This document shows positions 17,173-34,910 of a stretch of DNA of 35,543 nt, piece by piece. The notes under the pieces are model-generated. The model had not been told where the DNA came from, did not search any database, and saw only the letters and a program-made list of their open reading frames with translations. This DNA is from a virus, in IMG/VR virus record IMGVR_UViG_3300031669_000121, positions 1-35,543 of that record; one strand, 5' to 3'. Positions within the stretch are counted from its first letter, which is position 1; the number at the start of each line of letters is the position of its first letter. Made by a program: the position numbers and the translations under genes.

Positions 17173-17348
17173 TCTTCATTTTCCTTACCATAACTATCAC
17201 CACTTATGCAAACATATCCAGCTTTAATCATATTCGATATTTCATTAGCAATTTCCGTGGCTGCATCTTTTATGTCTTTTGTATAAATGCCCATACTTTT
17301 GTCTTTTATTTTTATAAAATGGGGACGCCCAAAAAAATCATCATTCAT
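17169..17348 (-). CDS. Small hypothetical protein behind terminase
   Basis: Fifty-nine codons. The ATG (17348) overlaps the terminase stop (TAATG), and the stop overlaps the next start (ATGA), so it fills the gap exactly. Protein MNDDFFGRPHFIKIKDKSMG, then IYTKDIKDAATEIANEISNM and IKAGYVCISGDSYGKENEE. GGAGG lies 10-14 bases upstream within the terminase end. Not recognised. Confidence 0.6.
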   Translation of the reverse strand: MNDDFFGRPHFIKIKDKSMGIYTKDIKDAATEIANEISNMIKAGYVCISGDSYGKENEE

Positions 17349-18919
17349 TATTTATATGCCTCCCTTCTAAGTTTATCAATTCTACCAAAACTATTGTTTA
17401 AACTTTTACCAATTTCCTGATATTTCTTTTTAGTATGCTCAATAAGTGATGCATCTGGGAACGCATATGTGAGTGATAAGGCGTCGGCGCAATCAGGTGA
17501 TCGTATACCACGCTTCTTCATCTGTTCTTTGCCTTCTAGCTTAATTCTGTCTTTAGAGTCATTTAATGGCATCACTCCGCATAAATCAGCTTCTAGTTCA
17601 TCGCTATCAGGCAATTCGTATGGTTGATCTAATATATCAAGCTTCATTAGTCCCCACATCTCGCATCGCTTATTGTAATAAGTATTTTGATCGAGCGGCG
17701 TATTGCTGCCAAGGATTGATTTTACAATATCCTTACTATGGCCAAGGTCATATAGACGATCTCTTATTTCGGCGCCACCACCAGCCGGACTGCCATCTAA
17801 TACAACAGCATCTGGACTTTCATCTAAAATGATTCGATGAATAATGCTCGTGAGTTCAGTTGGCGTACGCTTACTATGAGTTTGCATCTTATAAACCTTT
17901 CTAGTTCTACGCCTTATGATCACAGTTCTATCATTACCAGTAGTTGAGCAGTCAATACCGATAATTAATCGTCCAATAGGTTCTACTTTGGATTTTCGTG
18001 CTATTTGAACACTAGATGGTGATATAAATGCTTCATCACCAGACATAATAAATGCTTCATTCGGCGTGCATGGATATTCAGACATGAAGGCTTTCATGCC
18101 ATCCATGCCACCAACAGATAGATCATTTATCTTGCTTCGACGCCAGTTTAATTGCTCTTTTGATAGTCCATACAAATGGACATACAATTCTTCTTGCTCA
18201 TCTAGTTTAAAGTCTTCTATTACTTTTTTTCTATATTCATCTTGCCAGAACCATGGAATGAATATGGGAATAAAATCTGATTGCCCAGCTTCTGCTAATT
18301 GCCATTGTTCATGAAAGTAGTTACTTGTTCCACGTGCTGTAGACTCGTGGATTATTTCAGTGCCATCATCATTCGGGACGGCTTGAAGTACGCCCTTTGC
18401 ATGTTCGTCTGCGTGAGGCCAATATGCTACTTCTGAGCCATGTAATAATTGGATAGTAGAAGATCTACCTACAGATTTGTTACCTGCTGTTCCGAGCTTA
18501 TATCCAGAATCAAGACCTGAGAATATCAGTTCTTTCGCATTCGACGCTTCGATATTAGGACGAATAATACTAGGGCAATGTTCATGGTATCGCTGAGCCA
18601 TTTCAAATAAATTATTAGTGGCATCATTATCATGAGTAAGAATAAAAGCGCGCATACCAAAACGATGTGTAACGCGCCAATAAAACCGACCCTCAATATA
18701 CGTACTGCAACCTTGTTGTCTACCTTTTAGTATGATTGCACGAACTCGACCAGTTTCTCTTTTTTGCTTTTCAATGCACTCATGTATATATTCCTGTGAT
18801 TTATTTAGAATAAATGACTGTATCTCGCCAGACTTGCTTCTTATCTTGAGACATTTCTTTGCATAATGAACAAAATCATCTCTTAAACGTCTGCGTATGC
18901 TTCGCTCTAATTCATCCAT
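17348..18919 (-). CDS. Terminase large subunit
   Basis: A 523-residue DNA-packaging motor (P22 gp2: 499). ATPase domain: Walker A-like GRQQGCST at residues 66-73, Walker B region STIQLLHGSEVAYW with the probable catalytic Glu163, and a coupling motif near 'HESTARGTSN' (191-200). Nuclease domain of RNase H fold: Asp323 in IIGIDCSTTGNDRT, Asp375 in AVVLDGSPAGGG and Asp476 in SPDCADALSLTYAF. It acts with the small subunit encoded at 21443-21880, unusually some 2.5 kb upstream and separated by nine small genes. Confidence 0.93.
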   Translation of the reverse strand: MDELERSIRRRLRDDFVHYAKKCLKIRSKSGEIQSFILNKSQEYIHECIEKQKRETGRVRAIILKGRQQGCSTYIEGRFYWRVTHRFGMRAFILTHDNDATNNLFEMAQRYHEHCPSIIRPNIEASNAKELIFSGLDSGYKLGTAGNKSVGRSSTIQLLHGSEVAYWPHADEHAKGVLQAVPNDDGTEIIHESTARGTSNYFHEQWQLAEAGQSDFIPIFIPWFWQDEYRKKVIEDFKLDEQEELYVHLYGLSKEQLNWRRSKINDLSVGGMDGMKAFMSEYPCTPNEAFIMSGDEAFISPSSVQIARKSKVEPIGRLIIGIDCSTTGNDRTVIIRRRTRKVYKMQTHSKRTPTELTSIIHRIILDESPDAVVLDGSPAGGGAEIRDRLYDLGHSKDIVKSILGSNTPLDQNTYYNKRCEMWGLMKLDILDQPYELPDSDELEADLCGVMPLNDSKDRIKLEGKEQMKKRGIRSPDCADALSLTYAFPDASLIEHTKKKYQEIGKSLNNSFGRIDKLRREAYK

Positions 18920-19654: not shown

Positions 19655-19986
19655 TAATCATCATCCTTTTTACAGCCATTTTTTACCCATTCAATAGCTT
19701 TTTGATGGCCTTCTTCGGCTTCTTTCCATGTTGAATAACGATCACAATAAATTTCATAACGAGAATCTTCGCTATTAAAAACCATTGTCTCAAACACTAA
19801 AGGGGCGCCATCCCAGAAATTATTATTTAATCCAAGCCATACAGTAGAAATTCTTTTATTATCAATTAAATCCTTAGCAACATGTTTTGTTTTTGTTCTA
19901 CTCATTTCTTCATATTGATCACTCCATTCTTCTGCGCTACATAATGAAACTGATTTATCTTTATTAAGTTTATAAAAATTAGACAT
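19654..19986 (-). CDS. Conserved phage protein of the 'STV.LGL....FETMVF' family
   Basis: A 110-residue protein. 'RISTVWLGLNNNFWDGAPLVFETMVFN' and 'RYSTWKEAEEGHQKAIEWV' closely match a widespread small phage family of unknown function (consensus STVFLGLDH...P.LFETMVFG...RY.TW.EAE.GH). It forms part of a tightly packed operon, overlapping its upstream neighbour by eight bases and its downstream neighbour by one. Confidence 0.7.
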   Translation of the reverse strand: MSNFYKLNKDKSVSLCSAEEWSDQYEEMSRTKTKHVAKDLIDNKRISTVWLGLNNNFWDGAPLVFETMVFNSEDSRYEIYCDRYSTWKEAEEGHQKAIEWVKNGCKKDDD

Positions 19987-20398
19987 TTTTTATTAATCCA
20001 TTTTCGATTAAGTAAATAAGCATTTTTGCACGAGAGTCTGCTTCTGTATCACCAATAATTATAACTTTAGGAGGTAAATTGAAATTATAAAAATATGCTG
20101 TTAACCATCTATTATTAATATCTTTACATATATCAATTTTTAAATCTTGTTTAGTAGGAGTTTCTGTAGGAATGATACTTGGAAGCATTGCGCCGAGTTC
20201 TGATGCTGTAAAGGCGGAATATCCAGATAGATTTTTAGGTTTACAATCTATTATTTTAGGAATTAAATCAGGACAATTTATATAGGTATGAGCTTTTTCT
20301 TCGCACACCCACCAATAAAACAAACTTTCTTGTTTAACTCCCAATTCTTCTAAGCGTTTTGATAATTCTAAATTACTAAATTGATCTTCTCTTTCCAT
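19979..20398 (-). CDS. Conserved phage protein (AFTASELG.MLP family)
   Basis: A 139-residue protein with 'LSKRLEELGVKQESLFYWW', 'YSAFTASELGAMLPSIIP' and a C-terminal 'DTEADSRAKMLIYLIENGLI'. These three blocks are those of a common phage hypothetical family. Function unknown. Coupled to the upstream gene by TAATG. Confidence 0.65.
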   Translation of the reverse strand: MEREDQFSNLELSKRLEELGVKQESLFYWWVCEEKAHTYINCPDLIPKIIDCKPKNLSGYSAFTASELGAMLPSIIPTETPTKQDLKIDICKDINNRWLTAYFYNFNLPPKVIIIGDTEADSRAKMLIYLIENGLIKNV

Positions 20399-20574
20399 TA
20401 ATCTCTACCTTTTTCAGAATATAGATGAAGTATAAAATATAAACAAGTCACAGAAATTGTTTGTAAAAAAGAATATTCAATATCGTATGTAAAAATATAA
20501 GAAAAAATTGGAAGAAGGTATATACTAAATAATATAAACATTTTATTAATTAAATTAGATTTCATCTCAATCAT
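20398..20574 (-). CDS. Membrane mini-protein
   Basis: Fifty-eight codons from an ATG at 20574 overlapping the previous stop (ATGA), with GAGGA just before. MIEMKSNLINKMFILFSIYL, LPIFSYIFTY and LQTISVTCLYFILHLY give two hydrophobic spans. Not recognised. Confidence 0.6.
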   Translation of the reverse strand: MIEMKSNLINKMFILFSIYLLPIFSYIFTYDIEYSFLQTISVTCLYFILHLYSEKGRD

Positions 20575-20765
20575 TCCTCTTCTATTTGATCTCTTTTATT
20601 GAACTCATTTTCCATCTTCTGCATTATCATATCTACAACCTGAGAGACGCGTTCATTTAATCCATTTATTTTTTCATGTAATTCATTGACTCTTTTATGG
20701 TTAGAATAGAGGTCACTAAATGTTAATAACCATGAAATTAATAAAAGAAAATATACAACAATCAT
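20571..20765 (-). CDS. Single-span membrane protein with coiled coil
   Basis: Sixty-four residues from the ATG at 20765, overlapping the stop of the Tad2-like gene (ATGA). MIVVYFLLLISWLLTFSDLY is a membrane segment with the start of the soluble part; the rest (HKRVNELHEKINGLNERVSQ, VVDMIMQKMENEFNKRDQ) is a coiled coil. Holin-accessory, spanin-like or membrane-anchored defence roles are possible. Not recognised. Confidence 0.6.
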   Translation of the reverse strand: MIVVYFLLLISWLLTFSDLYSNHKRVNELHEKINGLNERVSQVVDMIMQKMENEFNKRDQIEEE

Positions 20766-20947
20766 TCTACTATCTCCCAATCTTTGGATGAGAGAAAATC
20801 TGATAAAGTACAATAGACGGTATTATCTTTTCCAATAAGAATCCATAATTCATCGTATTTTTTTACATATTGGATTGAATAATCACTATTTATTCTTTTT
20901 AGCTTTTTTCCTTTTGATAAAAATGGTAATACTTCAGTAAATTTCAT
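20762..20947 (-). CDS. Tad2/DUF2829-like protein, copy 3
   Basis: Sixty-one residues: MKFTEVLPFLSKGKKLKRIN at the front, LWILIGKDNTVYCTLSDFLS in the middle and KDWEIVE at the end. The front 'F.EVLPFL.KGKK.KR' and the 'DWEIVE' end match the DUF2829 family, now named after Thoeris anti-defence 2 (Tad2), which binds cyclic ADP-ribose-type and other nucleotide signals. Closest to copy 2 (about half identical by eye). The ATG is taken at 20947, overlapping copy 2's stop. Anti-defence function is inferred from the family only. Confidence 0.55.
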   Translation of the reverse strand: MKFTEVLPFLSKGKKLKRINSDYSIQYVKKYDELWILIGKDNTVYCTLSDFLSSKDWEIVE

Positions 20948-21138
20948 TATTCTACTATCTCCCAATCTTCTGATAAGATGAAATCTGAAAATGAGCAAAA
21001 AAGTGGACTGTTATTATCTTTTCCGCCAACAATCCAAATTTCGTAATCTGTATCAACATATTCAAGAGCAAAATCATCTTGCTCTCTTTTTATTTTTTTA
21101 CCCTGCATTAAAAATGGCAATACTTCGATAAATTCCAT
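20947..21138 (-). CDS. Tad2/DUF2829-like protein, copy 2
   Basis: Sixty-three residues: MEFIEVLPFLMQGKKIKREQ, IWIVGGKDNNSPLFCSFSDF and ILSEDWEIVE. Same framework as the neighbours: N-terminal helix 'F.E.LPFL..GKK..R', central strands with IW[IL]xxGKDN, and C-terminal DWEIVE. The ATG (21138) overlaps the stop of copy 1. The GGGAG that serves it lies inside the codons for the DWE of copy 1. Shorter than SPO1 Tad2 (about 90 residues), so the ligand site may be incomplete. Confidence 0.55.
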   Translation of the reverse strand: MEFIEVLPFLMQGKKIKREQDDFALEYVDTDYEIWIVGGKDNNSPLFCSFSDFILSEDWEIVE

Positions 21139-21443
21139 TATTCTACCAACTCCCAATCATCACGCATCAATAAAAGTAAGTTTATCTGTGGCAAATGTCC
21201 ATGCTTACAAGGTTTATCCCAATCTTTTGGAAGTTTATCAAGAGAGCCAATTCCCATGTCGTCATGTTTTCTTTCACTTTTCATCCACACAATGCTCATT
21301 GGCATTTCCCATACATTGATTGGTTCGGATATATCAGGATGTAATGAAACTCTACAAGCCATATAATATTCATCTTCTGGCATTGATGGATGACGAATTT
21401 TTTTACCTTTACGCATAAGTGCTAAAGCTTCTTCAAATATCAT
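21138..21443 (-). CDS. Tad2/DUF2829-like protein, copy 1
   Basis: A 101-residue protein with the fullest family pattern: MIFEEALALMRKGKKIRHPS at the front, a central 'MPMSIVWMKSERK' strand pair, and 'LPQINLLLLMRDDWELVE' at the end, where DUF2829 proteins have 'W..S..DLLA.DWE'. Tad2 proteins of this family sequester immune signalling nucleotides of Thoeris and some CBASS systems. The ATG overlaps the small-terminase stop (TAATG). Function is inferred; ligand residues were not checked. Confidence 0.62.
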   Translation of the reverse strand: MIFEEALALMRKGKKIRHPSMPEDEYYMACRVSLHPDISEPINVWEMPMSIVWMKSERKHDDMGIGSLDKLPKDWDKPCKHGHLPQINLLLLMRDDWELVE

Positions 21444-21880
21444 TATTCAAGTTCCTTAAGCGCGTCTTCAGGCCTGATAGTTGCATCAATATGTGTTTTA
21501 TCACCATAGATACGAGGTGCTAGTTTAGAAGCAAGCCATTTTCTTGTATCTATTCTCAAACGTGAACGATTGATATATTCAGCATTACAAACCACATTTC
21601 CAGCCTCCGAAATTATATCATCTTTGTAAATATTATCAGCAATATCAATGCATTCATCGACAAGTAATTCTACTTGTTGCTTCTTTGCTTCCTCGTACTT
21701 GTAGCGAAACTCTTCATGTTTCCAACGCCATCTTAAAATAACTTGTCTGCATGGCCAATGCTTGTTTTCTTTGCAAAGCGTAATTAATCCTTTATTGCTT
21801 GTTGCAATTGCATCAACAATTTCATCTGCAAGTTCATCATTATAATCGGTAGGCCTACCCGTCTTTATTTTTTCTGGCAT
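21443..21880 (-). CDS. Terminase small subunit
   Basis: A 145-residue DNA-recognition subunit for packaging. 'KIKTGRPTDYNDELADEIVD', a helix-turn-helix-like 'GLITLCKENKHWPCRQVILRW' and the C-terminal 'NRSRLRIDTRKWLASKLAPRIYGDK' are characteristic of the terminase small subunits that pair with P22/Sf6-type large subunits. The small subunit binds pac, which in P22 lies in this gene; no pac can be identified here by eye. It precedes the Tad2-like genes with a one-base overlap. Confidence 0.88.
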   Translation of the reverse strand: MPEKIKTGRPTDYNDELADEIVDAIATSNKGLITLCKENKHWPCRQVILRWRWKHEEFRYKYEEAKKQQVELLVDECIDIADNIYKDDIISEAGNVVCNAEYINRSRLRIDTRKWLASKLAPRIYGDKTHIDATIRPEDALKELE

Positions 21881-34743: not shown

Positions 34744-34910
34744 ATATTTTATTTTGCGATGGCTGTGGCTATGTCTATGGCGATGGCAGTGGCGATGGCG
34801 ATGGCGATGGCAGTGGCAGTGGCAGTGGCAGTGGCTGTGGCAATGGCGATGGCTATGGCTATGGCGATGGCAATGGCTATGGCTATGGCTATGGCGATGG
34901 CGATGGCTAG
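34728..34910 (+). CDS. Gly-rich hexamer-repeat peptide (GxG[DYSN])
   Basis: Sixty codons: MASEINILFCDGCGYVYGDG then GSGDGDG-type dipeptides to the end. The DNA from about 34758 to 34908 is a run of GGC[GAT/AGT/TAT/AAT/TGT] hexamer halves. All variation is confined to the codons between GGC/Gly codons and the frame stays open, so a Gly-X protein is plausible. It directly follows and overlaps the DUF6948-like gene; similar Gly-rich peptides follow this gene elsewhere, as far as I recall. Confidence 0.5.
   Translation: MASEINILFCDGCGYVYGDGSGDGDGDGSGSGSGSGCGNGDGYGYGDGNGYGYGYGDGDG
34758..34909 (+). repeat. GGC-NNT hexanucleotide repeat tract
   Basis: About 25 tandem units of GGCGAT, GGCAGT, GGCTAT, GGCAAT or GGCTGT. 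GC-rich in AT-rich surroundings and prone to slippage by units of six, which would leave the frame intact. Confidence 0.85.

What the first reader, a model, noticed from the sequence alone, without database searches (positions are those of the whole stretch)
20762..21443. Three tandem Tad2/DUF2829-like genes
Seen: three consecutive proteins with 'F.E.L.(F/L)(L/M)..GKK..R' fronts and 'DWE(I/L)VE' ends, of 101, 63 and 61 residues, linked by one-base overlaps. Known: Tad2 (DUF2829) proteins sequester signalling nucleotides of Thoeris and related immunity. Inference: a duplicated and diverged anti-defence array; the two short copies may bind other ligands, act as mixed oligomers, or have lost function.
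Basis: partly seen in the sequence, partly recalled or inferred. Interest (0 to 1): 0.7.

Follow-up and report, generated by a model that had tools for sequence, protein, structure and literature searches.

The report
Three back-to-back Tad2-like phage genes
A phage of unknown host carries three small neighbouring genes distantly related to Tad2, a protein that soaks up bacterial alarm molecules, but all three lack the loop shared by the Tad2 proteins of known structure, so what they bind is unknown; similar gene rows turn up in several other phages.

Summary
On the minus strand at 20762-21443 there are three complete genes (101, 63 and 61 aa) joined by one-base TAATG overlaps. They lie in the operon that carries the small and large terminase genes. 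All three belong to the Tad2-like (PF11195/DUF2829) superfamily: profiles built without any window protein find them at E about 1e-9, while no reversed sequence scores below 6. The 101-aa protein is predicted to have the Tad2 fold: ten Tad2 entries score Z 6.2-7.1, the next fold 3.2. Structural support for the 63-aa protein is weak. The array is one member of an uncultivated long subfamily plus a local duplicate pair (56% identical, dN/dS about 0.3). None of the three keeps the GWNGK loop found in every solved Tad2, so gcADPR binding should not be assumed; anti-defence function is inferred. A pattern scan of viral contigs found further Tad2-like tandem arrays, some with 7-8 paralogues and some with HTH fusions. 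Published annotation already records a one-base-overlapping DUF2829 pair (phage SpaA1). Verdict: a new variant of a known kind; most likely a diversified set of ligand-binding counter-defence proteins with unknown ligands.

The parts
21138..21443 (-). P1: Tad2-like protein, long form, 101 aa; subfamily with invariant C30, S50, M54, H60-x-D62-M63 and near-invariant H81
20947..21138 (-). P2: minimal Tad2-like protein, 63 aa
   Evidence: Pfam PF11195 E=0.0042 over the full profile, below the curated cut-off; held-out profile E=3e-9; profile with P3 and 8 viral relatives hits MoTad2 E=3e-7
20762..20947 (-). P3: minimal Tad2-like protein, 61 aa, local duplicate of P2
   Evidence: 56% identical to P2; held-out profile E=8e-10
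21443..21880 (-). small terminase subunit directly upstream, one-base overlap with P1
   Evidence: PF20901 Sf6_terminase E=5e-30
20571..20765 (-). small transmembrane/coiled-coil protein (64 aa), overlaps the end of P3 by 4 bases
   Evidence: weak PHROG match
19979..20398 (-). phrog_31971 protein, also found near P1-type genes in L001, L007, L008 and L016
19654..19986 (-). 110-aa phage protein, directly downstream of the P1-type gene in L006
17348..18919 (-). large terminase subunit, downstream end of the terS-terL interval that holds the array

Best explanation
The three genes encode divergent members of the Tad2-like (DUF2829) superfamily, made from one cassette in the late operon. Shown: homology, intact frames, selection against amino-acid change in the short pair, predicted Tad2 fold for P1, and one-base overlaps that allow coupled translation. 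Inferred: each forms a small oligomer that binds and sequesters a small signalling molecule of a host immune system (or a related metabolite). P1 would bind through its subfamily-specific residues and P2/P3 through a smaller pocket, so together they cover ligands other than those of SPO1 Tad2. The duplicate pair would give dosage and room to change specificity.
For: Held-out profile hits at E 8e-10 to 3e-9, best reversed E 6.3. P1 model: the three best of all PDB chains are SPO1 Tad2 (prob 0.94 for the first) and all ten entries above Z 6 are Tad2/AcrIIA7. Profile of P2/P3 and relatives hits MoTad2 3e-7, SPO1 Tad2 8e-5 and AcrIIA7 6e-4 along the whole length. P1 subfamily conserved in 13 further viral loci, with its own invariant residues. 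dN/dS about 0.3 between P2 and P3. Multi-gene Tad2-like arrays in other viruses. Solved Tad2s bind different nucleotides (gcADPR, His-ADPR, cyclic dinucleotides; PMC12043709, PMC13299392), so the fold tolerates ligand change.
Against: No binding data. The GWNGK loop (beta1-beta2, part of the gcADPR pocket per PMC12043709) is absent in all three, and P2/P3 also lack the insertion used for cyclic dinucleotides. The P2 structural match is weak: Foldseek lists no Tad2 among the 50 rows shown, VIA Z 2.6-3.8. The P1 model is only moderately confident (pLDDT 68). Position in the late packaging operon is unusual for a counter-defence gene.
Confidence: 0.5

Rival explanations
1. They are protein inhibitors built on the Tad2 fold: they block a defence protein directly, as reported for AcrIIA7, a DUF2829 protein named as a type II CRISPR-Cas inhibitor.
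For: AcrIIA7 is in the same superfamily and matches the P1 model at Z 6.2-6.5. Loss of the known ligand loop fits a protein target. DUF2829 genes sit beside AcrIIA7 homologues (PMC6739104).
Against: AcrIIA7 itself keeps GWNGK and is solved with cADPR and cGG bound. No host or target is known.
Confidence: 0.2
2. The short copies no longer bind ligand on their own and serve as partner subunits of P1 or of each other in mixed oligomers.
For: Co-translated neighbours; Tad2 is a tetramer with pockets between protomers (PMC12043709); short copies lack the known pocket elements.
Against: P1-type genes occur without a short partner in most related loci, and short forms occur without P1 (L020). P1 and P2 differ strongly apart from their ends.
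Confidence: 0.13
3. They are not counter-defence genes but serve packaging, late regulation or metabolite sensing.
For: P1-type genes lie between terS and terL in the window, L010 and L012. Other arrays sit just upstream of terL (L030) and include HTH-Tad2-like fusions, which suggests sensing or regulation.
Against: P1-type genes also occur away from terminase genes (L001, L013), copy number varies widely, and the only tested family functions are counter-defence.
Confidence: 0.17

Closest known systems
Tad2 of Bacillus phage SPO1 (PDB 8SMF) and MoTad2 (8V3E/9EIB)
   Same: Tad2-like superfamily; predicted fold for P1; N-terminal F-x-x-A/V-L-x-x-L-x-x-G helix and C-terminal DW-I-V-E strand
   Different: No GWNGK loop; P1 has a different long insertion, P2/P3 lack about 22 residues; three tandem genes instead of one
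AcrIIA7 / HgmTad2 (8KBI)
   Same: DUF2829 domain, same predicted fold as P1
   Different: AcrIIA7 keeps GWNGK; low identity (15% in the structural alignment with P1)
Tandem DUF2829 genes ORF60-ORF61 of phage SpaA1 (PMC3398947)
   Same: Two adjacent DUF2829 genes with a one-base overlap, plus a third DUF2829 gene near the terminase/portal genes
   Different: 80 and 87 aa, described as homologues of SPO1 gp34.65; no function given in the annotation
Tad2-like arrays in IMG/VR contigs L025, L026, L027, L030, L036
   Same: Tandem short Tad2-like genes, overlapping or nearly abutting
   Different: Up to 7-8 paralogues per record, some fused to HTH domains; other subfamilies than P1-P3

Membership tests
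Tad2-like superfamily (PF11195/DUF2829) | Significant sequence similarity to the family profile | tested here: met
   Single-protein Pfam scans are below the cut-off (12-18 bits against 25), but held-out family profiles give E 8e-10 to 3e-9 with reversed controls at 6 or worse
Tad2-like superfamily (PF11195/DUF2829) | Tad2 fold (P1) | tested here: met
   P1: ten Tad2 entries at Z 6.2-7.1, next fold 3.2; model pLDDT 68
Tad2-like superfamily, minimal copies P2/P3 | Tad2 fold | tested here: inconclusive
   P2 model: Tad2 entries are the top six in VIA but only at Z 2.6-3.8; no Tad2 in the 50 Foldseek rows shown; P3 not modelled
Functional Tad2 (anti-Thoeris sponge) | GWNGK beta1-beta2 loop present in all four solved Tad2 types | tested here: not met
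   0 of 3; present in SPO1, Mo, Spt and AcrIIA7/Hgm
Functional Tad2 (anti-Thoeris sponge) | Binding of gcADPR, His-ADPR or cyclic dinucleotides | not testable with these tools
   needs biochemistry
Functional Tad2 (anti-Thoeris sponge) | Homotetramer with pockets between protomers | not tested
   only monomers could be modelled

The most novel reading that the evidence does not exclude
Phages build and expand arrays of minimal Tad2-like modules by head-to-tail duplication, as a diversifying set of binders against many immune signals or proteins. The conserved C-terminal Trp-Glu codons (TGGGAG) supply the ribosome site for the next copy. The window's three-gene array is a small case of this.
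Probability: 0.25. Interest if true: 0.7.

Novelty: new variant of a known kind. Interest (0 to 1): 0.45.

Why it matters
Tad2 studies centre on single-copy, GWNGK-bearing proteins: a canonical query finds 413 places in 406 isolated-phage records, so nearly always one per record. The P1-type and array-type genes found here come from uncultivated viruses and gave no significant match among isolated phages. If these arrays bind immune signals, they point to ligands and defence systems not yet described, and to how phages enlarge such repertoires.

Tried and rejected
Single-sequence Pfam, NCBIfam and PDB searches were not decisive. A profile of the four solved Tad2s alone does not find the window genes significantly (E 0.33, 4.3, 82), so the link runs through intermediate viral sequences. 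Relatives of P2/P3 alone were not found by simple scans but were with a wider alignment. No P1 relatives in bacterial genomes with the patterns used. A synthetic short consensus found nothing among isolated phages and was dropped as a poor query. Foldseek gave no useful match for P2. The primary Tad2 structure papers are not held, so ligand contacts were taken from a review and from motif invariance, not from coordinates. Loss of function of the short copies was considered and disfavoured. A second Tad2-like domain fused in L018 was seen by eye but not supported by the profile, so it is not claimed.

Full report
OBSERVATION. The window is a whole IMG/VR virus record of 35,543 bases. Three complete genes lie on the minus strand: P1 21138-21443 (101 aa), P2 20947-21138 (63 aa) and P3 20762-20947 (61 aa). 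Both junctions read TAATG, stop and start sharing one base. terS (PF20901, E 5e-30) overlaps P1 in the same way at 21443, and a small transmembrane/coiled-coil gene overlaps P3 by four bases. The array is therefore part of one leftward gene run from upstream of terS to terL (17348-18919). A junction pattern fits exactly twice in the window and never in 100 shuffles.

FAMILY. Single-protein scans are suggestive only: Pfam Tad2-like PF11195 gives E 0.0042 for P2 over the full profile, 0.04 for P3 and 0.24 for P1, all under the curated cut-off. Viral relatives settle it. P1 has relatives at 35-59% identity in 13 other viral loci, and P2 has relatives such as L020 that pass the Pfam cut-off (33.5 bits). 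A profile of P2, P3 and eight viral relatives hits MoTad2 (3e-7), SPO1 Tad2 (8e-5) and AcrIIA7 (6e-4) along their length. With every window protein and every P1-subfamily sequence removed, an iterated profile still finds P3, P1 and P2 at 8e-10, 1.5e-9 and 3e-9, while the best reversed ORF is at 6.3 and the next window ORF at 41. A profile of the four solved Tad2s alone does not find them, so the relationship is real but distant.

STRUCTURE. The P1 model (pLDDT 68, pTM 0.58) has SPO1 Tad2 as its three best matches among 350,542 PDB chains (prob 0.94 for the first; the next fold 0.13). In VIA-align all ten entries from Z 6.2 to 7.1 are Tad2/AcrIIA7 and the next is 3.2. The P2 model (pLDDT 77) has the helix-strand order of a shortened Tad2, but Foldseek lists no Tad2 among the 50 rows shown and VIA gives Tad2 only Z 2.6-3.8, though as its top six. 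For P2 and P3 the case rests on sequence. P3 was not modelled.

HOW THE THREE RELATE. P2 and P3 are a local duplicate pair (56% identity; dS 0.92, dN 0.27, ratio about 0.3), which argues against decay of both copies. P1 is not a recent copy of them (8.5 bits against 67 bits for the pair). It belongs to a subfamily with invariant C30, S50, M54, H60, D62, M63, P85, L89, M93 and W97, and H81 in all but one member.

LIGAND SITE. All four solved Tad2 types (SPO1, Mo, Spt, Hgm/AcrIIA7) share R-x-GWNGK-x-MF. The beta1-beta2 loop lines the gcADPR pocket according to a review (PMC12043709). None of P1-P3, and none of the 64 rows other than the solved proteins in the family set, carries GWNG; about half of those rows keep a lone basic/polar-x-x-W, P1-P3 do not. 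P2 and P3 also lack the insertion linked to cyclic-dinucleotide binding. So family membership is supported and the specific function of SPO1 Tad2 is not.

ARRAYS ELSEWHERE. A DNA pattern for 'Tad2-like end, then Tad2-like start' found 15 stretches in viral contigs, all consistent with adjacent Tad2-like genes by eye and, where scored, by profile. The contigs fall into a few lineages, so these are not 15 independent events. L036 holds seven Tad2-like ORFs within about 3.4 kb and the record of L026 eight within about 5 kb (my count of distinct frames). Some arrays start with an HTH-Tad2-like fusion (L024, L027, L030). L009 pairs a P1-type gene with a second short copy. Precedent exists: phage SpaA1 ORF60/61 are two DUF2829 genes whose published coordinates share one base (PMC3398947), and 23 DUF2829 proteins were reported beside AcrIIA7 homologues (PMC6739104). 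Canonical Tad2 in isolated phages is nearly always single (413 places in 406 records).

POSITION. In the window, L010 and L012 the P1-type gene lies between terS and terL, although the terS proteins match different families. The L030 array lies just upstream of terL. This keeps a late or packaging-linked role open as a rival.

VERDICT. Observation confirmed; interpretation partly supported; new variant of a known kind. Function as a set of ligand-binding counter-defence proteins is the best guess (about 0.5) and is inferred, not shown.

Noticed in passing
L036 1027-4664; L026 4478-7110; L025 4528-7077: Very large Tad2-like arrays, up to seven or eight distinct ORFs in a few kilobases, including frames with two partial Tad2-like matches in series (190 aa).
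   Followed up: partly
L024 6-599; L027 11207-11605; L030 8097-8660: HTH domains fused to, or leading, Tad2-like domains at the start of arrays; L008 5916-6545 has a coiled-coil-like region with a weak Tad2-like C-terminus.
   Followed up: partly
window 20906-21155 minus strand; junctions in L024-L037: The Trp-Glu codons (TGGGAG) near each C-terminus contain a GGAG ribosome-site-like sequence 8-11 bases before the next ATG. All three window copies use GAG although GAG is 13% of Glu codons there; across the other arrays it is mixed.
   Followed up: partly
window 19979-20398 with L001, L007, L008, L016: A phrog_31971 protein of unknown function recurs near P1-type genes, adjacent or within about 1 kb.
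   Followed up: partly
window 34756-34909: Long 6/12/24-base tandem repeat (GCGATG-type), open in several frames and giving Gly/Asp- or Ala/Met-rich peptides.
   Followed up: no
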